Assembly (NCBI GenBank): GCA_013425335.1
Contig: JACCLG010000025.1
Coordinates: 1 to 39,608 of the forward strand
Reading direction: 5' to 3'
DNA length: 39,608 bases
DNA from: Microcaldota archaeon
Lineage (GTDB): Archaea; Micrarchaeota; Micrarchaeia; Burarchaeales; Fermentimicrarchaeaceae
Shown here: in pieces, positions 23,619 to 33,917 of the stretch
How positions within the stretch are numbered: the first letter of the stretch is position 1
Layout: every line of letters begins with the position of its first letter
Notes under the pieces: model-generated
Database searches by the model: none
What the model was told of the DNA's origin: nothing
What the model saw: only the letters and a program-made list of their open reading frames with translations
Translations under genes and position numbers: made by a program

Positions 23619-24815
23619 ATGGAGAGGGATACTTTAATAAAAGTAGGTGCGCTAATCACGGTGATTTTCTTCACGATGGAGTTATTCACAATGCGCTCTG
23701 CCGTCACAAGCTCGCCCGCGCAAAGTAACCAGACCAGCAATGAGACGCCGGTGTACGGCGCCGGAGTGGCCAATGCCACACTCCTGTCGTACTTGAACTA
23801 CGTCAGCCTGTTCAAGCAGGGAGCGGACCTATCCCGCAATGCCTCAATTGCAAACCTCAGCAACATGGACGGTGTCGGGTTCATCAACAACCAGAGCGGG
23901 GCAGTGACCCTGGTGCTGAATAACGGTGCAAATGTAACCCGGATAGCCCAAGAGGTGAAGGAGAGATTCCCGGATATTAACGTCACGGCGAGCGCCCTGT
24001 TCTCCATACCATCTGAAGTTGAATTCACCACCCAGCTGGGCAAGAGGAATGTAAGCATATCTTTCCTGCTCCAGATTCAGACTGAGCCGGACATTGATGT
24101 TGGGGACAACGTCACCGTATCGCTTGCCGGGATTCTGTACGGGGACCAGTTTTCAGAGAGCCCTACTGCAAGAATAATCCCGACTGAAAATGACGTGGTC
24201 ACCCACGCAACGGTGAGCGGTGTCGGAGATGAGTATTATGCAGTCGTTGCGCTTCCTTGGGAAAGGAGATATGTTAACACTACAATGATTGAAGGGGAGT
24301 TTCCAGCTACAATGGTGAATGTGAGCATCATCAACTACACGCCAAAATCATATGTTGCTGTCAAGGATCTTAGCTCGGCAAGCAATGACACGGTAAATAA
24401 AATCGGAAACCTGAGCTATGTCGAAGAAGTCAACGGCGATGTGGTGTATGTAAGGGATGACATGAACAACTCTGAGAAGCTGACGGCTGATTTAAAAGGC
24501 ATCCTTGGAAACAACACAACCATTGACTACCCTGTTTCCACAATGCCCGTCATATTCTCTTCCGCAAATGTGAGCAGTGATGACATCCTTAAACCGACAG
24601 GGGGCAAGCTTAATCTTTACAGGACAATGTTCCTTAAGCTCGGGGATACTGTAGCATTTGCCGGCGCCGATTATAATGTTCCCAGCAACACCACATTCAC
24701 TGCATTGCTTCTCAACAGCTCGTATTCCGTTGGGAAGAATGTCACTGTTGAAATTGGGATGAGGACTATAGGCAAGAGGATTGTCTCGCTGGAGCTGAAG
24801 AACATCCTGAGGTGA
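23619..24815 (+). CDS. Membrane-anchored, sequon-rich surface protein, unknown function
   Basis: A 398-aa protein with one N-terminal hydrophobic helix (about 7-23, IKVGALITVIFFTMELF) and a long extracytoplasmic region. It carries about 20 N-X-S/T sequons, a density typical of archaeal surface glycoproteins modified by an AglB-type oligosaccharyltransferase. There is no cysteine in the part I inspected and no recognised enzyme motif; the sequence looks beta-rich. The ATG at 23619 is chosen over 23544 because the longer form would overlap the divergent FKBP start and lacks a signal-like N terminus. The last sense codon (AGG) and the TGA stop are formed partly or wholly by the end of an inserted IS element (24811 onward), so the native C terminus may have been different. 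Confidence 0.8.
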   Translation: MERDTLIKVGALITVIFFTMELFTMRSAVTSSPAQSNQTSNETPVYGAGVANATLLSYLNYVSLFKQGADLSRNASIANLSNMDGVGFINNQSGAVTLVLNNGANVTRIAQEVKERFPDINVTASALFSIPSEVEFTTQLGKRNVSISFLLQIQTEPDIDVGDNVTVSLAGILYGDQFSESPTARIIPTENDVVTHATVSGVGDEYYAVVALPWERRYVNTTMIEGEFPATMVNVSIINYTPKSYVAVKDLSSASNDTVNKIGNLSYVEEVNGDVVYVRDDMNNSEKLTADLKGILGNNTTIDYPVSTMPVIFSSANVSSDDILKPTGGKLNLYRTMFLKLGDTVAFAGADYNVPSNTTFTALLLNSSYSVGKNVTVEIGMRTIGKRIVSLELKNILR

Positions 24816-25974
24816 CATGCTCCCACCCCTGAAGGGTGCGGGCTTCCTGCTTCATTGACGTTGCTACTGCAACATCTCTCTCCATTAAGGAATTGCAGGC
24901 GTTACTTCCCGAGTGCCCCTCGGTAGCTCTTATGAGTATATTGCGTGCAGCATTGATGTCCCTGTCCATGCTCAATCCGCAGAAAGGGCAGTTATGCATC
25001 CTTTCCGTAAGGTCTTTTCTGACAATCTGGTGGCAGCTGCTGCACTCCTGAGTCGTATTCTTAGGGTCTACAAACACCACCGTGCATCCAGCTCCTTCCG
25101 CCTTGTATGCAAGCATGTTTGCAAACATACTCCATCCCGCATCGTTGATTTGCTTCCCGTAATCCTGCTCTGACATCTTCTGTGAGGCAAGCCTTTCTGA
25201 TGCTATGAAGGAATAATCATTCACCAGATGTGTTGATGTTTTATGAAGGAAGTCCTTTCTTGTGTCTGCTACTTTCTCGTGAAGCCTTGCAATCCTTACC
25301 TTTGCTCTCTTCCTGCTTTTGCTCCCTTTCTTTTTCTTTGAGAACTTCCTCTGGATGAAGGCAAGTCTATCCTCATGCTTCATGAGATGTCTTGGATTGC
25401 CTATCTTCAGACTGTTTGATAATGTTGCAAATGTCTTCAGCCCCAAGTCAATTCCAACTGCTTCTCCCTTGTTCTGCTTTGGGATTTCTTTGGGTGTATC
25501 AACGCAGAAAACAGCAAACCACTTCCCTGATGCCTCCCTTTTCAGAGTCAGAGTTTTGATTTTTCCTTTTATCTCTCTGTGCCTCTTTATTGCAATCTCT
25601 CCAAAAGGAGTTACTTTAAGTTTCTTGTCAAGCCAGAAACCAGTCTCATACTGCGGGTAATGCAAGCTCTTCATTCTTTCAATTGATTTGAAGCGCGGGA
25701 AACCGCATTCCACTCCTTTCTTCCTCAGCTTGAAAACCCTCATCACTGCATTATAAACCCTGTGTGCTACCTCCTGCTGTGTTTGAGAATAGAGGCCATA
25801 ATCTTTCACAATGAGCTGCAGGGTGTTCCTGGTCGGGAAGTAGCCAAAATCCCTGTAAGTCTGCTTGCTGTGCTCAAGCATCTCATTCCAGAGGTTCTTT
25901 GCCAGCCAGAGGTGCTGCCTCATCTGTTCCTCCTGCTTCTTTGATGGATATATTCTGAATTTGTAGGCTCGCAT
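24766..25974 (-). CDS. tnpB: TnpB (IS200/IS605-type RNA-guided nuclease), copy 1, with stop-loss extension
   Basis: TnpB is the transposon-encoded RuvC-type nuclease that uses a guide RNA made from the element's right end; it is the ancestor of Cas12. The 402-aa protein has the catalytic residues: D176 (GIDLGLKTFATLS), E260 (IASERL) and D337/D339 (DRDINAARNIL), plus the zinc ribbon C311, C314, C329, C332. It begins MRAYKFRIYPSKKQ, as is typical. Compared with copy 2 its natural stop has become CAG, so translation continues about 20 residues through the element end (24811) into antisense host sequence, to a stop at 24766. A TATA box (TTTATAAA, 26001-26008) lies about 28 nt upstream of the ATG. 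No tnpA is nearby. Confidence 0.95.
   Translation of the reverse strand: MRAYKFRIYPSKKQEEQMRQHLWLAKNLWNEMLEHSKQTYRDFGYFPTRNTLQLIVKDYGLYSQTQQEVAHRVYNAVMRVFKLRKKGVECGFPRFKSIERMKSLHYPQYETGFWLDKKLKVTPFGEIAIKRHREIKGKIKTLTLKREASGKWFAVFCVDTPKEIPKQNKGEAVGIDLGLKTFATLSNSLKIGNPRHLMKHEDRLAFIQRKFSKKKKGSKSRKRAKVRIARLHEKVADTRKDFLHKTSTHLVNDYSFIASERLASQKMSEQDYGKQINDAGWSMFANMLAYKAEGAGCTVVFVDPKNTTQECSSCHQIVRKDLTERMHNCPFCGLSMDRDINAARNILIRATEGHSGSNACNSLMERDVAVATSMKQEARTLQGWEHVTSGCSSAPARQSSCL
24781..24870 (-). ncRNA. Predicted right-end guide RNA (omegaRNA/reRNA) of IS copy 1
   Basis: By analogy with characterised IS200/IS605 systems, the RNA overlaps the 3' end of tnpB, folds the right-end hairpin (about 24822-24842) and continues into host DNA, where the first 16-20 nt act as guide. 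The predicted guide on the minus strand is TCAGGATGTTCTTCAGCTCC (24810 to 24791), complementary to the end of the surface-protein gene. Boundaries are inferred, not observed; the 5' end in particular is unknown. Confidence 0.4.
24822..24842 (-). repeat. Right-end hairpin of IS copy 1
   Basis: On the minus strand: CCCGC/GTGGG (one G-T pair), one unpaired A, inner stem CCCT/AGGG and a 2-nt loop, followed by AGCATGTCACC to the element end. Its architecture matches the left-end hairpin. Confidence 0.78.
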
Positions 25975-25998
25975 AGACGTTATTTACTTCTGTTTTTC

Positions 25999-26010
25999 CC
26001 TTTATAAACC
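25999..26010 (-). promoter_or_regulatory. TATA box of tnpB copy 1
   Basis: On the minus strand GAGGTTTATAAAG (about 25999-26011) lies about 28-35 nt upstream of the tnpB ATG (25974). The same sequence precedes copy 2 (31250-31260). Confidence 0.55.
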
Positions 26011-26097
26011 TCTGGGAGGGGTAACTTTCCAGTGAAAAGCCGGTATAGGGAGAAGTTGCATCCGCTGGAAAATTCTGAGTTTATGCGCTCGCTCTCA

Positions 26098-26124
26098 TCC
26101 CACCGCTAAAGCGTGTGGGATTTC
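26098..26124 (-). repeat. Left-end hairpin of IS copy 1
   Basis: On the minus strand: 7-bp outer stem ATCCCAC/GTGGGAT, one unpaired A, 4-bp inner stem CGCT/AGCG and a 2-nt loop. Copy 2 has the same architecture with CTCT/AGAG in the inner stem, a compensatory change. An imperfect hairpin with an unpaired base is the feature recognised by HUH TnpA enzymes of the IS200/IS605 family. Confidence 0.8.
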
Positions 26125-26170
26125 CCGCTCACCTTGTTAAGCTTAAATTCAGCGCCTGCCCATCTAATCT

Positions 26171-26683
26171 GTGCGAACCGGTTTCAGGGAGCACATCCTG
26201 GCAGGGGCATTGCTTTTCATAACAATACTGGCGCTGCTGCCAATTCCTGTTGGGGTTGAGCTGCTGCTGGCTGGTGCACTTTTCATCGCAGGGGGCGTCA
26301 TGCCCGACTTGGACAGCAGCTCGTCAAAGCTAAGGAGATTCGCCAGGATTTTGGCCCTTGCGGCAGTAATCTCTGCATTGTTCTTTGCATACCCATTGCT
26401 GTCCGGGGGCTGCAGCGCTGTTGCAGGAAGCGCATGCGTCTACATGCCGCTGGCATTGGCTTTTCTGGCTGTAGGGGTGGTATACGTGCTTGATTCGCTT
26501 GTTCCAAAGCACAGGGGGGTCATGCACAGCTTCTCTGCCGCTCTGGTGTACGGAGCCGGGGTATTTCTTCTGACTCTGTATATTGGGGTGGGAAGCAGCT
26601 TTATACTCGGGGCCTGGGCTTTTGGCGGGTACCTCTCCCATATTCTTGTTGACTTCATAGGGGATGCAATTCCTTTTAAATAG
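26171..26683 (+). CDS. DUF457/YdjM-type membrane-bound metal-dependent hydrolase
   Basis: A 170-aa integral membrane protein with about five hydrophobic helices. It matches the LexA-binding, inner-membrane-associated YdjM/DUF457 family, with putative metal ligands placed as expected: H8 (REHILAG), D46 and D48 (GGVMPDLDSSSSK), H114 and H119 (KHRGVMHS), H157 and D161 (YLSHILVDF). Substrate and role are unknown. The start is GTG at 26171, with a TATA-like CTTAAATTC (about 26141-26149) about 25 nt upstream, so the message is probably leaderless; this promoter lies only about 10 nt outside the IS boundary. Confidence 0.85.
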   Translation: MRTGFREHILAGALLFITILALLPIPVGVELLLAGALFIAGGVMPDLDSSSSKLRRFARILALAAVISALFFAYPLLSGGCSAVAGSACVYMPLALAFLAVGVVYVLDSLVPKHRGVMHSFSAALVYGAGVFLLTLYIGVGSSFILGAWAFGGYLSHILVDFIGDAIPFK

Positions 26684-26686
26684 GGG

Positions 26687-26791
26687 ATGAGCAATAATAT
26701 TGGCGATGACGATACCGTCCCAGAGGGATACAATATGACCGACGGAGTAGCTTCGGAGCCACTTTTGAGTAATGGCATATGTTATTTCTGA
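26687..26791 (+). CDS. Possible 34-aa small protein
   Basis: A short open frame starting ATG 26687, 3 nt after the DUF457 stop codon and with GGGG immediately upstream. The product starts MSNNIGDDDTVPEGYNM and ends GICYF. It is acidic with no recognised motif. Position directly behind the DUF457 gene is the only support; it may be non-coding. Confidence 0.22.
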   Translation: MSNNIGDDDTVPEGYNMTDGVASEPLLSNGICYF

Positions 26792-26816
26792 ATTAGATTA
26801 AGCCTGCTCCGACTTC

Positions 26817-26936
26817 TCAATCCTCTTCTTCCTCTGTTTCCGCATCCTCCTCATCGTGCTCTTTCTCTTCCTCATCCTCCCCAGTCTCGTCGTTTTGTTC
26901 GGTTCTGAGGATACCACAGATTATAATTTGCTCCAT
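26817..26936 (-). CDS. Small acidic protein, 39 aa
   Basis: A short open frame from ATG 26936 to the TGA at 26817. The product begins MEQIIICGILRTEQND and continues in a highly acidic tail of mostly E and D (about 21 of the last 25 residues are E, D or similar). GGTGAC lies just before the ATG and an AT-rich TATA-like sequence (CTTAATATAC, about 26972-26981) about 40 nt upstream. It is downstream of the small gene at 26992-27267. No family is recognised; low complexity makes the coding call uncertain. Confidence 0.4.
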   Translation of the reverse strand: MEQIIICGILRTEQNDETGEDEEEKEHDEEDAETEEEED

Positions 26937-26991
26937 AATCGTCACCGGTCAGTAATTGGTATCCAAATGTATATTAAGCTTGTTTTGGCTT

Positions 26992-27267
26992 CTAATCAAG
27001 CTTGAAGTAATACGACTTGTCCTTGAGGTTGTACCTGCATTTGAGCTTGCCGGATTTGACAAGGGAGTCAAACAGCTTGAAGCACAGCACGGAGAATTTT
27101 GACTTGCCGCTTCCAATGATTGCGAGGAACTGCTCCCCCGTGTCTGTGATGAGGTATTTCTTCCCGCTGACCTGGCGTATGATACCAAGCGCCTCAAAAA
27201 ACCCCAGCCCGTCATTGAACTCATCCTCAGTCAGCTTGTACGCCTTGAGGGGGGAGTCGTCTTCCAT
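26992..27267 (-). CDS. Small hypothetical protein, winged-helix-like
   Basis: A 91-aa soluble protein without cysteine clusters except two single cysteines. The arrangement (YKLTEDEFNDGLGFFEALGIIRQVSGKKYLITDTGEQFLAIIG) looks like a compact helix-helix-wing module: a helix ending in ALGII, a beta hairpin RQVSGKKYLITDTGE and a further helix. A second similar beta hairpin lies at the C terminus (KCRYNLKDKSYYFKLD). I do not recognise the family; a DNA-binding or adaptor role is a guess. It is followed by the acidic 39-aa frame on the same strand. Confidence 0.7.
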   Translation of the reverse strand: MEDDSPLKAYKLTEDEFNDGLGFFEALGIIRQVSGKKYLITDTGEQFLAIIGSGKSKFSVLCFKLFDSLVKSGKLKCRYNLKDKSYYFKLD

Positions 27268-27295
27268 AATCTATTCATGAGGTTGTTTAAATTAA

Positions 27296-27547
27296 TTACT
27301 TGTTTACACCGTAATCGAACTCGCTGAAGAATCCGTAGAGCACGACAAAAATGCTCACAATCATAATCAGCTGAAAAATCACTATGTCGTTCTGGTATGT
27401 TTGCGAATTCATGCACAGGTAGCAAGGGTTCAGGTCGTTTACTGGGTTTGGAGTTGTGCAGCCGCAGACGAAGTCGTAGGCCCTGCTTGCCAGTATGAAA
27501 CCTATGAAGAAAAGAATAAAACCGGCAATTGCAACTTGGTACTTCAT
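27296..27547 (-). CDS. Small two-helix membrane protein with cysteine motifs
   Basis: From the ATG at 27547 this is 83 aa, with two transmembrane helices (about 5-22, VAIAGFILFFIGFILASR, and about 54-73, IVIFQLIMIVSIFVVLYGFF). The loop between them contains CGC and CYLC (FVCGCTTPNPVNDLNPCYLCMNS), suggesting a disulfide-linked or metal-binding extracellular loop. The in-frame ATG at 27634 would add 29 residues that overlap the EamA gene; the TATA-like TATTAAAG (about 27570-27578) lies about 25 nt before 27547 and favours the shorter form. Function unknown. Confidence 0.65.
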   Translation of the reverse strand: MKYQVAIAGFILFFIGFILASRAYDFVCGCTTPNPVNDLNPCYLCMNSQTYQNDIVIFQLIMIVSIFVVLYGFFSEFDYGVNK

Positions 27548-27572
27548 GAGGGGTATATTTGTCAGGCCCGCT

Positions 27573-28469
27573 TTAATACTTTTCTGAGCCTTCCTTTGTG
27601 GAGTAATAGACTCCTGCAAATATGAGCACAGCACCTAGTGCGGAGTACGGCGCAAGACGCTCGCCCAGGAATATGTATGAGAGGAGTATTGAGGAGAGCG
27701 GCACGAGATAGATGAAGATGGCAGCCTCGGAGGCGTCAATTCTCTCAAGCGAGTAGGACCATGCAAAATAGCCGAAAACTGTGCATGTGACGGCAAGGTA
27801 GAAAAGCCAGCCGGCATCATAGAGGGAGAGGGAGAGAAGCTTGGGGGCTGTTGGGGTGAGGAATGCCACAGGAAGCAGGAGCAGGGTGCCGAAGATGGAT
27901 GCATACACCACCAGAAAAATAGCGGAATGACTCCCAACTGCTTTCTTGCTCATCACAGTATAGACCGCCCAGCAGCACGTGCTCAGCAATGAGAGAATTG
28001 AGCCGGTGATGTCGCTCATTTTCGTCCCGAAGTTCATATCGCCGTTCGTTATTACTAGAAAAGCCCCGAGGAATGCTATGAGGATTGCTGCCACCTTTTT
28101 GAAGTCTATCTTCTCCCTGAGGAAGAAGGATGAGAGCAGCAGGGTGACAGTGGGGTTGAAAGTTGTCATGAGGGATGCATTTATTGCGGTTGTGAGGTTG
28201 ACTCCGGAATACTGCAGGATGTAGAGCAGTGCAACTCCGAAAATTCCAAGAAGGATGAGCATGCCTACATCTTTTCCCTCCAGCCGCTCTCCTTTCACGT
28301 GCAGCCAGAGAGCAACCGGGATGAACATCACTGAGACAAGCAGGAACCTGCCCGTTGCTATGAGAATTGGGTCCAGATCAGCCGTGAGTGATTTGACAAC
28401 TATCCAGGAGCTCCCCCAGAATAAGGCTGTGAGAGCGAGCAGGAGGTATAGGAATAATTTTCGCACCAT
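27573..28469 (-). CDS. EamA/DMT-superfamily transporter
   Basis: A 298-aa inner-membrane permease with about ten transmembrane helices in two EamA repeats. The first repeat begins LALTALFWGSSWIVVKSL (about 10-27); the second begins SLLSTCCWAVYTVMSKKAVG (about 153). EKIDFKKVAAILIAFLGAFLVITNG and EAAIFIYLVPLSSILLSYIFLGERL are typical of the family. DMT members export or import amino acids and other metabolites; the substrate cannot be inferred. I chose ATG 28469 rather than the in-frame ATG at 28499 because a TATA-like TTTTAAAC (about 28486-28493) would otherwise lie downstream of the start. Confidence 0.92.
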   Translation of the reverse strand: MVRKLFLYLLLALTALFWGSSWIVVKSLTADLDPILIATGRFLLVSVMFIPVALWLHVKGERLEGKDVGMLILLGIFGVALLYILQYSGVNLTTAINASLMTTFNPTVTLLLSSFFLREKIDFKKVAAILIAFLGAFLVITNGDMNFGTKMSDITGSILSLLSTCCWAVYTVMSKKAVGSHSAIFLVVYASIFGTLLLLPVAFLTPTAPKLLSLSLYDAGWLFYLAVTCTVFGYFAWSYSLERIDASEAAIFIYLVPLSSILLSYIFLGERLAPYSALGAVLIFAGVYYSTKEGSEKY

Positions 28470-28495
28470 CTGATTTTGCGTGAAAAGTTTAAAAC

Positions 28496-28777
28496 TCAAC
28501 CGTATGTTATGTAGAATGACTTGAACTCCCCGGTGAAATCCCCCCAGGAGTGCTCAATCTTGTCAATCCTGGAGCCTTCTGAACCTTTCCCGCACCAGGC
28601 GAGCAGGGCTTCAAGCTGCTCCCTTTCGCCCTCAGCAAGAATTTCCACCGAGCCGTCCCTCCTGTTCTTCACCCAGCCGGTTAAACCAAGATTGGAGGCC
28701 TTCTCCTCGGTGCTGGAGCGAAAGAAAACTCCCTGCACAATTCCATAAACTTCAATATGCAGCCGAGCCTTAGCCAT
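28496..28777 (-). CDS. acyP: Acylphosphatase
   Basis: Hydrolyses acyl-phosphates such as 1,3-bisphosphoglycerate and carbamoyl phosphate. The 93-aa length matches the family. The signature is complete: VYGIVQGVFFRSSTEEKASNLGLTGWVKNRRDGSVEI, with the phosphate-binding arginine in VFFRS and the catalytic asparagine in VKNRRDGSV. The ATG at 28777 starts MAKARLHIEVYG; five extra residues from 28792 are unlikely because TATA-like AATACATAAAT (about 28790-28800) lies there. Confidence 0.95.
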   Translation of the reverse strand: MAKARLHIEVYGIVQGVFFRSSTEEKASNLGLTGWVKNRRDGSVEILAEGEREQLEALLAWCGKGSEGSRIDKIEHSWGDFTGEFKSFYITYG

Positions 28778-28872
28778 ACTTTCATATTGCATTTATGTAT
28801 TTTTAATTCTGTCAGTTCCTCCGTAATATGCTTTATATTTCTTTCCTGAGAAGTCTATTCGGGGGGGTTGTT

Positions 28873-29916
28873 ATGAAGGGCGAGATGAAGGCAGTTATGA
28901 AAAAGAAGCCAGGTCCTGGAGCGGAGCTGGTGACCGTTCCCATACCTAAGATAGGCCCGAGAGATATTCTTGTGAAAATCAAGGCGACCTCAATCTGCGG
29001 GACAGATTCTCACATATACGAGTGGAATGCATGGGCGCAGAGGAGGATAAAGCCGCCTAGGATAATGGGGCATGAGTTCGGCGGGGAGGTTGTTGAAGTT
29101 GGGAAAGATGTCACGTTTGTTTCTCTTGGGGACCACGTCTCTGCTGAGACTCACATAGTTGACAACAAATGCTTCCAGTGCAGGACTGGCCAAGCCCACG
29201 TTTGCCAGAACATGAAGATACTGGGAGTTGACACAGACGGCTGTTTTGCGGAGTATGTCGCGATTCCAGAAGAAAATGCCTGGGTGAACGACAAGAGCCT
29301 GCCTCCTGAAATAGCCGCAATACAGGAGCCGTTTGGCAATGCGGTTCACACTGTTTTCTCAGAAGGTGTAGAAGGAAAGACTGTTGCAATTTTCGGTCTA
29401 GGTCCTATAGGAATATGCGCGGTTGCCATATGCAAAGCAGCCGGGGCAGCACACATATTTGGCGTAGGGAGGAAGAATGAGTACAGATTGAACCTTGCTA
29501 AGAAGATGGGTGCCGACACGATAATCAAGTCAAACGAGCAGGATGCAGTGAAAATCATAAAGGAGGCAACTGGCGGCTATGGGGTTGATGTGGCGCTTGA
29601 GATGGCAGGAAGCCAGGAGGCAATAAACCAGTCGCTGAAGGTGCTCAAGCCAGGCGGTAGGATGTCCGCGCTGGGCCTGCCTGAGGGGGATATAACACTG
29701 AATTGGGCTGATGACATTATATTCAAGGCTGTGAGGATATACGGCATAACAGGCAGGAGGATGTACGGGACATGGTATACCACTGCAGGTTTGCTGAAGT
29801 CTGGCAGGGTGAATGTGGAGCCGATAATAACGCACAAGTTCAAGCTTGAGGAGTATGACAAGGGAATGCAGCTGATGCGCGAAGGAAAATGCGGCAAGGT
29901 TGTTCTATATCCATAG
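28873..29916 (+). CDS. tdh: L-threonine 3-dehydrogenase
   Basis: NAD-dependent medium-chain zinc dehydrogenase that oxidises L-threonine to 2-amino-3-ketobutyrate. The 347-aa length equals that of archaeal Tdh. Catalytic zinc ligand C42 (ICGTDSHIYEWNAW), H67 and E68 (MGHEFGG), and the Rossmann motif FGLGPIG (about 174-180) are present. The structural zinc lobe has C100, C103 and C111, but position 97, a cysteine in the Pyrococcus enzyme, is D97 here. The ATG at 28873 follows GGGGGGG (28861-28867); the earlier ATG at 28828 overlaps the TATA region. Kbl follows 11 nt downstream, together degrading threonine to glycine and acetyl-CoA. Confidence 0.95.
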   Translation: MKGEMKAVMKKKPGPGAELVTVPIPKIGPRDILVKIKATSICGTDSHIYEWNAWAQRRIKPPRIMGHEFGGEVVEVGKDVTFVSLGDHVSAETHIVDNKCFQCRTGQAHVCQNMKILGVDTDGCFAEYVAIPEENAWVNDKSLPPEIAAIQEPFGNAVHTVFSEGVEGKTVAIFGLGPIGICAVAICKAAGAAHIFGVGRKNEYRLNLAKKMGADTIIKSNEQDAVKIIKEATGGYGVDVALEMAGSQEAINQSLKVLKPGGRMSALGLPEGDITLNWADDIIFKAVRIYGITGRRMYGTWYTTAGLLKSGRVNVEPIITHKFKLEEYDKGMQLMREGKCGKVVLYP

Positions 29917-29927
29917 GGGGTGTATAC

Positions 29928-31103
29928 ATGGGAAGCAGGCTTGGTTTCATATCTGCAGAAATTAATGACATGAAGCAGAAGGGGCTTTTCAAAGTTCCGC
30001 CGATTCTTGGAGGGCCTCAGGGAGCGAGGGCAGTTGTCAATGGCAAGGAGGTCATAAATCTATCTTCAAACAGCTACCTGCAGCTCACGACAAACAAGAA
30101 AATGAAGAAAGCTGCAATTGAGGCGCTGAGAAAATACGGGGTTGGAACAGGGGCTGTGAGGCAGATTATAGGCACAATGAGCATACATGAGGAGCTTGAG
30201 AAGAAGGTTGCAGCATACAAAGGAGCCGAGGCAGTCCTGATGTTTTCCTCGGGAGTTGCTGCAAACAGCGGGACGATTCCCACACTTGTGGGGGAAGGGG
30301 ATTTGATAGTAAGCGATGAGTTGAACCACGGCAGTATAATCGACGGGTGCAGGCTCACAAAGGCTGAGAGGAAGATATACCCGCATTTGAACATGGAGGA
30401 GCTTGAGAGAATACTCAAGGAGAGCAAGCACAGGAGGAAGCTCATAATAACAGACGGAGTGTTCAGCATGGACGGAGATATTGCTCCCATGGACAAGATA
30501 GTTGAGCTGGCTGAGAAGTACGATGCGATAACATATGTTGATGACGCCCACGGCGAGGGTGTTCTGGGAAAGAACGGCAGGGGGATTGTTGACCACTTCA
30601 ACCTGCATGGGAGAGTGGATGTGGAGATGGGGACATTCTCAAAAGCATTCGGCTGCATGGGAGGCTACGTTGCAGGGACGGAGGATTTGAGGAGCTACCT
30701 CATACAGAGGGCGAGGTCATTCCTGTTCAGCACTTCGCACCCTCCAGCGACTGTGGCTGCAATAAGCGCTGCAATAGATGTTGTCCTTGAGCAGCCCAAG
30801 CTGTTTGACAGGCTGTGGGGCAATGCAAATTACTTCAGGAAGAAGCTTAAGAGGCTAGGCTTCAACACAGGGAACAGCCAGACGCCCATAATACCCGTGA
30901 TGACTGGGGAGAGCGCAGTTGCGCAGCAGCTTTCCAACAAGCTCTTTGAGAAGGGAGTGTATGTCAACCCGATTGTGTACCCGATGGTTGCAATGGACAA
31001 GGCCAGAGTCAGAAACATAGTGACTGCAGGGCACAAGAGGAAGGACTTGAATGCCGCGCTTGCAGCATATGAAGAAGTGGGCAAGGAGCTCAAACTGATA
31101 TAG
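29928..31103 (+). CDS. kbl: Glycine C-acetyltransferase (2-amino-3-ketobutyrate CoA ligase)
   Basis: PLP enzyme of the alpha-oxoamine synthase family that splits 2-amino-3-ketobutyrate with CoA into glycine and acetyl-CoA. From the ATG at 29928 it is 391 aa. Features: NLSSNSYLQL (about 44-53), GTGAVRQIIGTMSIHEELE (about 73-91), SDELNHGSIIDG (about 129-140), the aspartate/histidine pair in YVDDAHGEGVLG and the PLP lysine K239 in GTFSKAFGCMGGY. GGGGGTG lies just before the ATG. Immediate neighbour of tdh, which makes its unstable substrate. KBL is the best call, though 8-amino-7-oxononanoate synthase is a related alternative that the tdh context argues against. Confidence 0.94.
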   Translation: MGSRLGFISAEINDMKQKGLFKVPPILGGPQGARAVVNGKEVINLSSNSYLQLTTNKKMKKAAIEALRKYGVGTGAVRQIIGTMSIHEELEKKVAAYKGAEAVLMFSSGVAANSGTIPTLVGEGDLIVSDELNHGSIIDGCRLTKAERKIYPHLNMEELERILKESKHRRKLIITDGVFSMDGDIAPMDKIVELAEKYDAITYVDDAHGEGVLGKNGRGIVDHFNLHGRVDVEMGTFSKAFGCMGGYVAGTEDLRSYLIQRARSFLFSTSHPPATVAAISAAIDVVLEQPKLFDRLWGNANYFRKKLKRLGFNTGNSQTPIIPVMTGESAVAQQLSNKLFEKGVYVNPIVYPMVAMDKARVRNIVTAGHKRKDLNAALAAYEEVGKELKLI

Positions 31104-31138
31104 GCTTCAAAAAGGTATTTATCAATTGTGAGCGGGAA

Positions 31139-31163
31139 ATCCCACACTCTTCAGAGGTGGGAT
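31139..31163 (+). repeat. Left-end hairpin of IS copy 2
   Basis: Outer stem ATCCCAC (31139-31145) with GTGGGAT (31157-31163), unpaired A at 31146, inner stem CTCT (31147-31150) with AGAG (31153-31156), loop TC. The inner stem differs from copy 1 on both sides, preserving pairing. Confidence 0.82.
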
Positions 31164-31169
31164 GAGAGC

Positions 31170-31252
31170 GAACGTATAAACTCAGAATTTTCCAGCGGAT
31201 GCAACTTCTCTCTATACAGGCTTTTCACTGGAAAGCTACCCCCCTCCCAGAG
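31170..31252 (+). repeat. Conserved non-coding segment between left-end hairpin and tnpB promoter
   Basis: About 80 nt almost identical between the two IS copies, with no start codon or open frame. It contains an inverted pair TTTCCAG/CTGGAAA (about 31187-31193 and 31228-31234) about 34 nt apart. It ends with a C-rich stretch and GAGGTTTATAA. Function unknown: TnpA-binding site, tnpB regulator or RNA are possible. Confidence 0.6.
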
Positions 31253-31260
31253 GTTTATAA
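31250..31260 (+). promoter_or_regulatory. TATA box of tnpB copy 2
   Basis: GAGGTTTATAA, centred about 30 nt before the ATG at 31288, so the message is probably leaderless. Same as in copy 1. Confidence 0.55.
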
Positions 31261-31287
31261 GGAGAGAAATCAACGTAAATAACGTCT

Positions 31288-32442
31288 ATGCGAGCCTACA
31301 AATTCAGGATACATCCTTCCAAGAAGCAGGAAAAGGAAATGCAGAGTCACCTGTGGTTATCAAAAGAATTGTGGAATGAGATGCTTGCTTTTACAAAGGA
31401 GATTTACAACAACTACCAGAAATTCCCAACTAAAAAGACATTAAGAGAGTTGGTTAAAAATAGCGGCTTGTTTTCACAAGTAGGGCAGGAACTTGTTGAC
31501 AGATTGGTTGACTCCCTACATAGAAAAATAGAGATGAAGAAAAACGGGGAGAAGGGAGGTTTCCCGCGCTTCAAATCAATTGACAGGATGAAATCTCTGC
31601 ATTACCCGCAGTATGAATGTGGATTTTGGTTGGATAAAAAACTCAAAGTAACTCCTTTTGGAGAGATTGCAATAAAGAGGCACAGAGAGATAAAAGGCAG
31701 AATCAAAACTCTGATTGTGAAGAGGGAATCCTCAGGAAAGTGGTTTGCCGTTTTTACTGCTGAAGAAGAGAGATTACTGCCAAAAGAAAATAAAGGAGGA
31801 GTAGTTGGAATTGACTTGGGGCTGAAGACATTTGCAACCTTATCAAACAATCTGAAGATAGGCAACCCGAGGCATCTCATGAAGCATGAGGACAGGCTTG
31901 CCTTCATCCAAAGGAAGTTCTCAAGGAAGAAGAAAGGAAGCAAAAGCAGGAAGAGAGCAAAGATAAGGATTGCAAGGCTTCACGAGAGAGTAGCAGACAC
32001 AAGAAAGGACTTCCTTCATAAAACATCAACACAACTTCTCAATGATTATTCCCTCATTGCATTGGAGAAACTTGCATCAAAAGAAATGGCTGAACAGAAT
32101 TACGGCAAGCAGATAAATGATGCAGGATGGAATATGTTTGCAAACTTCCTTGCATACAAGGCGGAAGGGGCTGGATGCAGGGTGGTGTTTGTAGACCCAA
32201 GGAATACTTCAAAGATGTGCAGCAGGTGCGGAAACATCAGAAATGACCTGACGCTCTGGGACAGAGCATATAACTGTCCTGAATGTGGACTGTCAACAGA
32301 CAGGGATTTAAATGCTGCGCGTAACATACTTACAAAAGCTACCCCTGGGCAAGGGGGAAGTAACGCCTGCAATTCCTTATTGCATGAGGAGAGAGATGTT
32401 GCAGTAGCAACGTCTATGAAGCAGGAAGCCCACACTCTTTAG
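31288..32442 (+). CDS. tnpB: TnpB (IS200/IS605-type RNA-guided nuclease), copy 2
   Basis: A 384-aa nuclease with an intact RuvC triad: D176 (GIDLGLKTFATLS), E260 (IALEKLAS) and D338/D340 (DRDLNAARNIL), and zinc ribbon C311, C314, C330, C333. The N terminus MRAYKFRIHPSKKQEKEM and HLWLSKELWNEML helix are standard TnpB/OrfB features. Residues about 90-155 and 170-260 are nearly identical to copy 1, while about 20-88 (the REC/WED side) and the zinc ribbon diverge more. Its stop TAG lies within the right-end hairpin (CTCTTTAGGGG), so the guide RNA scaffold and the C-terminal codons overlap. Confidence 0.96.
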   Translation: MRAYKFRIHPSKKQEKEMQSHLWLSKELWNEMLAFTKEIYNNYQKFPTKKTLRELVKNSGLFSQVGQELVDRLVDSLHRKIEMKKNGEKGGFPRFKSIDRMKSLHYPQYECGFWLDKKLKVTPFGEIAIKRHREIKGRIKTLIVKRESSGKWFAVFTAEEERLLPKENKGGVVGIDLGLKTFATLSNNLKIGNPRHLMKHEDRLAFIQRKFSRKKKGSKSRKRAKIRIARLHERVADTRKDFLHKTSTQLLNDYSLIALEKLASKEMAEQNYGKQINDAGWNMFANFLAYKAEGAGCRVVFVDPRNTSKMCSRCGNIRNDLTLWDRAYNCPECGLSTDRDLNAARNILTKATPGQGGSNACNSLLHEERDVAVATSMKQEAHTL

Positions 32443-32480
32443 GGGTGGGAGCATGTCACCATATACTATGTCTGTTTGAA
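32390..32480 (+). ncRNA. Predicted right-end guide RNA (omegaRNA/reRNA) of IS copy 2
   Basis: Predicted by analogy with known TnpB systems. It overlaps the tnpB 3' end, includes the right-end hairpin (about 32429-32449) and runs past the element end. The predicted guide is ATATACTATGTCTGTTTGAA (32461-32480), which is the promoter/leader of the downstream TPR-AAA gene. The 5' end is not determined. Confidence 0.4.
32429..32449 (+). repeat. Right-end hairpin of IS copy 2
   Basis: Outer stem CCCAC/GTGGG, one unpaired A, inner stem CTCT/AGGG (one G-T pair) and a TT loop. It includes the tnpB stop codon. It matches copy 1, where the stem is CCCGC/GTGGG with CCCT/AGGG. Confidence 0.78.
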
Positions 32481-32489
32481 GGGGTAGCC

Positions 32490-33917
32490 ATGGATGAAGA
32501 TGAGGGGGAATACAGCGAGGCGAATGCAGAGAGCTATTACAAGACAGGCAACGAGTACTACGAGAAGGGCAACTTCGACCTTGCTGTTGAGTATTACAAC
32601 AAGGCAATAGAAGCAGACCCTATGTTTGACAAGGCATATTACAACAGAGGCTTGGCATACGCCTGCAAGGAAGAATATGACAAAGCAATTGAGGATATAA
32701 ACAAGATGATTGAGCTCAAGCCGAATTTTGCTGAAGCTTACTACATCCTCGGCTTGGCTTATGAGTACAAGAACATGCCTGATGATGCAATAAAGAACTA
32801 TAACAAGGCGCTGGAGCTTAACCCTGACTTCAAGGACGCTCAAAACAGGCTGGAGCTTGCAAAGAGCAAGAAAGAAAAGGCAAAGGAGGTTACAACAACT
32901 GAGCCGGGCACTCTTGCAAAGATAGAGTTCCTTGAGAAGCCAAAGACGAATTTCAACGATGTTGCCGGGATGGCGTACGCCAAAGAGACGATAAACGAGC
33001 AGATTGTCTACCCGTTCAAGAACCCGGCGCTTGCAAAGAAATATGGGAAGATGGCAGGCGGAGGGATAATGTTCTACGGCCCTCCGGGATGCGGCAAGAC
33101 GTTCATGGCAAAGGCAACGGCGGGACAGTGCGATGTGAATTTCATCCACGCCAGAATAAACGAGATAGTGGACATGTATGCAGGCAACACGGAGAAGAAC
33201 CTGCACAGGGTGTTTGAGACTGCAAGGAAGAATTCTCCCGCAGTCGTTTTCTTTGATGAGATGGAGGCGATGGGAGGGAAGAGGGAAGGGCAGGATATGC
33301 AGGGCTTCCAGAAAATGGCAATAAACCAGTTCCTTGCAGAGATGGACGGGCTGGAGAGCACCACTGAGAATATACTCGTCATAGGAGCTACAAACGCCCC
33401 CTGGGATGTAGACCCTGCCCTCAAGAGGTCAGGCAGGTTCGGCAAGACGATATATGTGGGGCTGCCTGACAAGAAATCTAGGGAAGCGCTGTTCAAGCTA
33501 TACTGCAAGAACAGACCTGTGAAGGGGATATGGCGGGGGAGGCTTGCAAGGATGACTGAGGGGTATTCCAGCGCTGATGTAAAGCAGCTCTGCGATGATG
33601 CTGCAACAATACCCTGGAAGGAGGCCTACGTGGGGAAGAAGGAAAGGTCCATTGTCATGGGCGACTTCATAAGGGCAATAAGGAATAGGAAATCAACCCT
33701 GCCGGAGTGGTTCGGCACTGTCAGAAAGCAGCTTGTGGGGAAGAAGGAGAAGGTTGTGCAGGATGGGAAGGAGCACTGGGTGGAGCATGAGAGCAAGCTC
33801 TCGCCAGAGGAGAAGCAGCTCTACAAGGATTTGATAAAAGACGTGAAGCAGTACACGGAGTGGAGGTACAAGATTCCAAGGATGATTAAGATTGGGTTCT
33901 CGAAATGGATCTTTTGA
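32490..33917 (+). CDS. TPR-AAA ATPase fusion protein
   Basis: A 475-aa protein fusing three consecutive 34-residue TPR repeats (about 14-115: YYKTGNEYYEKGNFDLAVEYY, AYYNRGLAYACKEEYDKAIEDI, AYYILGLAYEYKNMPDDAIKNY) to one AAA domain of the p97/Vps4/katanin class. Walker A GPPGCGKT (197-204), Walker B VVFFDEMEA (D256, E257), sensor 1 IGATNAPWD, arginine-finger region LKRSGRFGKT, and pore loop EIVDMYAGNTEKN. An unassigned C-terminal region of about 100 residues follows. The TPRs probably bring partner proteins to the ATPase. The ATG at 32490 follows GAAGGGG; TATA-like ATATACTA (32461-32468) abuts the IS end. Function unknown. Confidence 0.92.
   Translation: MDEDEGEYSEANAESYYKTGNEYYEKGNFDLAVEYYNKAIEADPMFDKAYYNRGLAYACKEEYDKAIEDINKMIELKPNFAEAYYILGLAYEYKNMPDDAIKNYNKALELNPDFKDAQNRLELAKSKKEKAKEVTTTEPGTLAKIEFLEKPKTNFNDVAGMAYAKETINEQIVYPFKNPALAKKYGKMAGGGIMFYGPPGCGKTFMAKATAGQCDVNFIHARINEIVDMYAGNTEKNLHRVFETARKNSPAVVFFDEMEAMGGKREGQDMQGFQKMAINQFLAEMDGLESTTENILVIGATNAPWDVDPALKRSGRFGKTIYVGLPDKKSREALFKLYCKNRPVKGIWRGRLARMTEGYSSADVKQLCDDAATIPWKEAYVGKKERSIVMGDFIRAIRNRKSTLPEWFGTVRKQLVGKKEKVVQDGKEHWVEHESKLSPEEKQLYKDLIKDVKQYTEWRYKIPRMIKIGFSKWIF

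What the first reader, a model, noticed from the sequence alone, without database searches (positions are those of the whole stretch)
24811..26132. Paired IS200/IS605-type end hairpins with covarying stems and a conserved unpaired A, in two oppositely oriented copies
Aligning the ends of the elements at 24811-26132 and 31128-32460 shows the same architecture at both left and right ends: outer stem ending in CCCAC/GTGGG, one unpaired A, a 4-bp inner stem and a 2-nt loop. The inner stems differ between copies on both sides (left ends CGCT/AGCG versus CTCT/AGAG), so pairing is preserved by compensatory change. This points to selection on structure, as expected for HUH transposase recognition, although neither element encodes TnpA.
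Basis: partly seen in the sequence, partly recalled or inferred. Interest (0 to 1): 0.7.

Follow-up and report, generated by a model that had tools for sequence, protein, structure and literature searches.

The report
TnpA-less archaeal transposon ends, plus solo hairpins
The two elements are ordinary-looking jumping genes of a tiny archaeon whose DNA hairpin ends still obey the base-pairing code of the IS200/IS605 transposase, although no gene for that transposase was found in any of the eight genomes of their family that were searched, and dozens of copies have shrunk to a single 50-letter hairpin.

Summary
The window lies in a Fermentimicrarchaeum-like micrarchaeon. Both elements are tnpB-only and end in subterminal hairpins with one bulged purine. 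Across 30 distinct left-end hairpins, pairing is kept through compensatory changes. Corrections: the bulge is A or G; the inner stem is 3 bp with a 4-nt loop; the right-end hairpin is looser; true boundaries are 24812-26136 (-) and 31123-32459 (+).

The ends follow the IS608 guide/cleavage code. Left targets pair with left guides (TTAA/AAAT, TTAG/AAAC, TTAC/AAAG; 39 of 54 loci complementary at base 4, 22 expected) and right sites with right guides (TCAC/GAAG; elsewhere TCAG/GAAC). No Y1 TnpA was found in the genome, genus (one closed genome) or family, but complete tnpA-tnpB elements with the same ends, and TnpB up to 57% identical, occur in other Micrarchaeota. So these are trans-mobilised, non-autonomous IS605-group elements.

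Unexpected: at least 36 solo copies in the genus (left flank + one hairpin + right flank, about 50 nt), also seen in tnpA-bearing relatives. They are most likely collapse products of LE-RE hairpin recombination, like solo LTRs. New variant of a known kind.

The parts
24812..26136 (-). Element copy 1, tnpB-only IS605-group element (1325 nt), inserted 3' of TTAA
26137..26140 (-). Left cleavage/target site C_L = TTAA flanking copy 1
   Evidence: sequence; alignment of LE/solo copies
26120..26123 (-). Left guide G_L = AAAT, complementary to TTAA under the IS608 code
26099..26119 (-). Left-end hairpin CCCAC-A-CGC-TTTA-GCG-GTGGG
24822..24842 (-). Right-end hairpin CCCGC-A-CCC-TTCA-GGG-GTGGG
24843..24846 (-). 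Right guide G_R = GAAG
24812..24815 (-). Right cleavage site C_R = TCAC (complementary to GAAG)
24766..25974 (-). tnpB of copy 1 (402 codons as an open frame; reads through the right end into flanking DNA), OrfB_IS605 + TNB zinc domain
31123..32459 (+). Element copy 2, tnpB-only IS605-group element (1337 nt), inserted 3' of TTAT
31119..31122 (+). Left flank TTAT of copy 2 (4th base not complementary to guide AAAT: an exception)
31137..31140 (+). Left guide G_L = AAAT
31141..31161 (+). Left-end hairpin CCCAC-A-CTC-TTCA-GAG-GTGGG
31288..32442 (+). tnpB of copy 2 (384 aa); its stop codon lies in the right-end hairpin loop
32425..32428 (+). Right guide G_R = GAAG
32429..32449 (+). Right-end hairpin CCCAC-A-CTC-TTTA-GGG-GTGGG (weak fold)
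32456..32459 (+). Right cleavage site C_R = TCAC

Best explanation
The hairpins are the TnpA recognition ends of a micrarchaeal IS605-group element. Single-stranded top-strand DNA folds at both ends; a dimeric Y1 (HUH) TnpA binds the two hairpins; the tetranucleotide just 5' of each hairpin pairs with the cleavage site (AAAN with TTAN on the left, GAAG with TCAC on the right); the element leaves as an ssDNA circle and inserts 3' of another TTAN. The copies in this genus carry only tnpB, so they must have been moved in trans by a TnpA that is now lost or supplied from outside. TnpB/omegaRNA would keep copies in place. The solo copies arise mainly when recombination or replication slippage between the two direct-repeat hairpins deletes everything between them, leaving left flank + one hairpin + right flank. 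Shown here: hairpins with covariation, guide/cleavage complementarity, two clean empty sites, absence of a detectable Y1 TnpA in the family, complete relatives with tnpA and the same ends, multiple solo junction types. Inferred: TnpA binding, ssDNA intermediates, trans supply, TnpB retention, and the collapse route of solos (that step about 0.6).
For: Covariation in left ends. Guide/target base 4 complementary at 39 of 54 loci against 22.4 expected, 0 of 20000 shuffles; after collapsing to one per distinct spacer 36 of 47 against 21.3. Right ends: GAAG with TCAC (12) and GAAC with TCAG (6) in Micrarchaeota outside the genus. Published code TTAC/AAAG and TCAA/GAAT in IS608 (PMC5934647). Empty sites CTGA|CTATTT and TTTAG|TAAAC. 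Complete element in L207: LE (TTAA, AAAT), tnpA with HUH and Tyr, tnpB 56% identical, RE (GAAG, TCAC); L084/L216 likewise has LE + tnpA + tnpB, 57%. Two 191-nt MITEs 97.4% identical at different places of the closed genome, implying comparatively recent movement. Solos: inner stems of left type, right type and mixed, and junctions outside the hairpin in G025.
Against: Y1_Tnp was not found in any of 8 family genomes, so the mover is unidentified. 15 of 54 loci break base-4 complementarity, copy 2 of the window among them. Right-end hairpins fold weakly. No site was found that holds a full element in one species and a solo in another at the identical position, so collapse is not directly seen. 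Nothing here tests biochemistry.
Confidence: 0.86

Rival explanations
1. The hairpins are conserved for RNA function (the right end lies at the 3' end of the omegaRNA scaffold, the left end near the tnpB promoter), not for transposase recognition.
For: The right-end hairpin directly follows the conserved omegaRNA core and overlaps the end of tnpB.
Against: The left-end hairpin lies upstream of the tnpB promoter block and covaries best; guide/target and guide/right-site complementarity is a property of DNA cleavage; solos lack omegaRNA and tnpB yet keep the hairpin.
Confidence: 0.06
2. Solo hairpins are themselves mobile units, like bacterial REPs, moved by a TnpA as single-hairpin elements, rather than scars of collapsed elements.
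For: Solos outnumber full elements in G000 and G002; identical 53-nt solos occur at different loci of different species (G000:C51:225, G001:484045); both cleavage sites flank one hairpin; presence/absence at orthologous sites.
Against: Solos keep only the left guide (AAAN), which does not match their right site TCAC, so canonical excision is not predicted; solos show several junction types, as expected of repeated independent deletions. Identical solos are also expected if left and right ends are conserved.
Confidence: 0.25
3. The elements are dead relics; the covariation and guide match only record activity before the family lost TnpA.
For: No TnpA in 8 family genomes; full copies within G000 are at most about 86% identical; some guides mismatch their targets.
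Against: Two 97.4% identical MITEs in the closed G001 genome; insertions absent at orthologous sites of sister species. It is compatible with the main explanation except for timing.
Confidence: 0.35
4. The resemblance between left ends is plain recent common descent or gene conversion, and the compensatory change is chance.
For: With two window copies there is only one compensatory pair.
Against: Three or more Watson-Crick types at inner pairs over 30 distinct hairpins, far above shuffles and slid registers; the same architecture in other families of the phylum.
Confidence: 0.01

Closest known systems
IS608 (Helicobacter pylori) and ISDra2, IS200/IS605 family, IS605 group
   Same: Subterminal hairpins with an unpaired base, guide tetranucleotide 5' of each hairpin, cleavage sites matching the guides by the same code, insertion 3' of a short target without duplication, tnpB (PMC5934647, PMC8612924).
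   Different: No tnpA in the element or in the searched genomes of the family; target fourth base varies (TTAA/TTAG/TTAC) together with the guide; the bulged base is A or G, where IS608 has T (the latter from memory).
tnpB-only IS200/IS605 elements (IS1341 group; from memory)
   Same: One gene, tnpB, between IS605-type ends.
   Different: Here end structure, guide code, target and complete tnpA-bearing relatives with the same ends could be assigned.
PATEs/MITEs of IS200/IS605
   Same: The 177-279-nt copies with both ends and no intact gene are of this kind; a 271-nt PATE-like sequence is described in Halanaerobium (PMC7290912).
   Different: The solos have a single hairpin carrying the outer flanks of both ends, which goes beyond a PATE with two ends.
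REP sequences moved by TnpA_REP/RAYT (bacteria)
   Same: Short dispersed, mostly extragenic single hairpins with a guide-like motif related to IS200/IS605 (PMC8266576).
   Different: No RAYT or other Y1 protein in these genomes; the hairpins are clearly derived from IS605 ends; copy number per genome is low (3-14 in the genomes that have them).

Membership tests
IS200/IS605 insertion sequence family | Y1 (HUH) transposase TnpA encoded by the element | tested here: not met
   Only tnpB in each element; no PF01797 match in own genome, genus or family and none with a 16-sequence micrarchaeal TnpA profile at E<=10. Hence 'non-autonomous derivative', not a complete member.
IS200/IS605 insertion sequence family | Subterminal imperfect hairpins at both ends | tested here: met
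   Left ends strongly; right ends present but weak and variable.
IS200/IS605 insertion sequence family | Guide tetranucleotide 5' of each hairpin complementary to its cleavage site | tested here: met
   Left 39/54 against 22.4 expected; right GAAG/TCAC and GAAC/TCAG.
IS200/IS605 insertion sequence family | Insertion 3' of a specific short target, no target duplication, no terminal inverted repeats | tested here: met
   Two empty sites and TTAN left of nearly all copies. Both empty sites concern solos, not full elements.
IS200/IS605 insertion sequence family | ssDNA excision and circle formation by TnpA | not testable with these tools
   Needs biochemistry.
TnpB (RNA-guided nuclease) | OrfB_IS605 + Cas12f1-like TNB domains | tested here: met
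   PF01385, PF07282, PF12323; NF040570 (301 and 283 bits); TnpB chains 8bf8/8h1j at 1.4e-40. Cleavage not tested.
REP/RAYT system | TnpA_REP (Y1 family) in the same genome | tested here: not met
   No PF01797 match in 8 family genomes.
REP/RAYT system | Short dispersed extragenic hairpins | tested here: met
   28 of 36 solos lie outside ORFs of 70 aa or more although 91.5% of the stretches is open frame.

The most novel reading that the evidence does not exclude
The ~50-nt solo hairpins are a self-standing mobile family in archaea (a REP-like system derived from IS605 ends) that is moved in genomes lacking any known Y1 transposase, implying an unrecognised transposase or supply of TnpA from neighbouring cells.
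Probability: 0.15. Interest if true: 0.75.

Novelty: new variant of a known kind. Interest (0 to 1): 0.45.

Why it matters
The family gives a natural experiment on the DNA-guide code of IS200/IS605: target and guide change together (TTAA/AAAT, TTAG/AAAC, TTAC/AAAG; TCAC/GAAG, TCAG/GAAC), so a code worked out on two bacterial elements can be read from archaeal genomes. It also shows tnpB elements persisting and having moved where no TnpA is found in the whole sampled family, and a frequent end state, a single hairpin, that would be missed by annotation and could be mistaken for a terminator or regulatory repeat.

Tried and rejected
Rfam has no match in 24001-33500. Reading the opposite-orientation copies at orthologous intergenic sites as inversion of one insertion: alignments show separate insertions a few to tens of nt apart, so the idea was dropped. 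G003:C34 solo against G004:C60 element was first taken as solo and full element at one site; the alignment shows G004 has the empty TTTAG site and its own element farther downstream. Solos as terminators: no downstream T-run and no fixed orientation to genes. A 4-bp inner stem with 2-nt loop: the folded minimum is 3 bp and 4 nt. Literature searches found no description of these ends or of single-hairpin derivatives in Micrarchaeota in the held open-access library; one search used unusual terms and its zero says little.

Full report
What was checked. Each element holds one gene, tnpB (PF01385, PF07282, PF12323; NF040570), 73% identical between copies. The genome (1.0 Mb, 55 contigs) holds five near-complete tnpB copies, deleted copies and many end fragments. 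Relatives place it with Ca. Fermentimicrarchaeum limneticum: G001 has the length of CP058998.1 (1,178,830 bp, closed), and G002 contigs match the Sv368 assembly.

Structure. A covariance model of eleven solo copies found 114 end or solo hits in five genomes of the genus. Left-end hairpins have the form CCCAC-R-NNN-TTYA-NNN-GTGGG. On 30 distinct left-end hairpins, 25 from the genus and 5 from outside it, 93.8% of pair cells are standard pairs; the three inner pairs change on both sides (UA, CG, GC; CG, AU, UA; CG, UG, UA), 22 cells against 7.4 in shuffles, none of 500 shuffles reaching it, and slid registers lose pairing. Shuffles do not remove relatedness, but the number of pair types and the occurrence in other families argue against a single inherited change. 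Solo hairpins are similar. The bulged base is A in 29 and G in 7 of 36 left ends. Right ends vary: about half have another length or register, and the two in the window fold no better than shuffles.

Guide code. IS608 has C_L TTAC with G_L AAAG and C_R TCAA with G_R GAAT (PMC5934647). By that pattern base 4 of guide and site are complementary and guide bases 1-2 pair with site bases 2-1. Here the four bases 5' of the left hairpin are AAAN, and TTAN precedes the element. TTAA goes with AAAT (17), TTAG with AAAC (19), TTAC with AAAG (3): 39 of 54 loci are complementary, 22.4 expected by shuffling, 0 of 20000 shuffles as high. Collapsing to one case per distinct spacer, with relatives from other genera added, gives 36 of 47 against 21.3. 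Exceptions exist (7 TTAA/AAAC, 4 TTAG/AAAT, and copy 2 of the window with TTAT/AAAT). On the right, GAAG precedes the hairpin and the element ends TCAC; in one group of other Micrarchaeota GAAC goes with TCAG (12 and 6 cases read by eye, tallied). The association is a test that could have failed and did not.

Boundaries. The empty site in G000:C12 (TCTC-CTGA|CTATTT) against the G002:C8:29915 solo, and TTTAG|TAAAC in G004:C60 against the G003:C34:6329 solo, show insertion after TTAN with no duplication. In the first, the resident base pattern differs (CTGA versus TTAA), so the target is inferred there.

Where is TnpA. PF01797 gave no match in the own genome, the genus or any of 8 family genomes, while 109 of 295 sampled phylum genomes have it. 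A profile of 16 micrarchaeal TnpAs found nothing in the family even at E<=10. The search is not proof of absence in incomplete genomes, but one genome is closed and another is estimated 100% complete. Elsewhere in the class the same ends flank tnpA: L207 carries LE (TTAA/AAAT), tnpA, tnpB (56% identical) and RE (GAAG/TCAC) in order; L084/L216 has LE, tnpA and a 57% identical tnpB; L206 and L214 have LE + tnpA. Their TnpAs form a subgroup 65-72% identical, with HUH and the C-terminal Tyr. These are the best cognate candidates.

Solo hairpins. Solos consist of TTAN + left spacer + left guide + one hairpin + AGCATGTCAC. Of 37 hits classed as solo (G000 13, G002 14, G001 7, G003 3, G004 0), one weak G002 hit (16.5 bits) is doubtful; one degenerate hit classed as RE (G003:C9:104652) and one as LE (G000:C49:14639) look like further solos by eye. 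Most lie outside genes: 28 of 36 do not overlap an ORF of 70 aa or more although 91.5% of the stretches is open frame (binomial about 2e-23); several genes end at a stop codon supplied by TTAA/TTAG or by the GTGA of the right end. The inner stem is of left type in about 11, of right type in about 11 and mixed in 4 (read); in G025, junctions lie 3' of the hairpin (GGGATGATGTCAC, GGGATGGATGTCAC). Repeated independent deletions between the LE and RE hairpins explain this. The solo keeps the left guide only, which does not match TCAC, so canonical excision is not expected. No site with a full element in one species and a solo at the same position in another was found, so the collapse route is inferred (about 0.6). 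Solos also occur in the tnpA-bearing genomes G025 and G300.

Timing. Two 191-nt MITEs in the closed genome are 97.4% identical at different loci, so movement continued after much of the divergence of the full copies (at most about 86% identical within G000). Whether it continues now cannot be told.

Verdict. The solo hairpins are the less expected part.

Noticed in passing
G000 C38:19755, C38:6799, C5:7591 (L010-L012); G001 L228, L229, L231, L232; G002 L240; G004 L245: About 215-nt cassettes with the tnpB promoter block (TTCACTGGAAAGTTACCCC + TATA box) directly followed by the omegaRNA core and, in most, an altered right end (CTACACGCCATGAAACAGGGGCTGAAA..GTGTGAGGATGTCAC), without tnpB: candidate stand-alone omegaRNA genes, some perhaps orthologous between species.
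   Followed up: partly
24812-24815 and many solos: Element ends supply stop codons: TGA from GTGA of the right end closes the upstream gene at 24815, and TTAA/TTAG left flanks or GTGA close genes beside several solos.
   Followed up: partly
L134 C4:4381 / L159 C29:7207; L162 C40:38665 / L190 C4:5749; L138 / L161; L121 / L173: The same orthologous intergenic gap has been hit in different species by separate insertions in opposite orientation, a few to tens of nt apart.
   Followed up: partly
L128 (G000:C7:42215) and L171 (G002:C7:22796): A shared solo with the adjoining 113 nt of left flank 100% identical while the right flank overall is 82% identical; both contigs end there. Recent exchange or an assembly/binning effect.
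   Followed up: no
L214 1338-1402, L265 (G039:C11:22897): Left ends of tnpA-bearing elements with an extra nested hairpin inside the stem (CCCTCTTTAGAGGGTTCCCTTTAGGGG), which may be a precursor or variant end type.
   Followed up: no
32435-32442 and 24766-24830: tnpB of copy 2 stops inside the right-end hairpin loop (CTT TAG); in copy 1 the frame has lost that stop and reads through the right end into flanking DNA.
   Followed up: no
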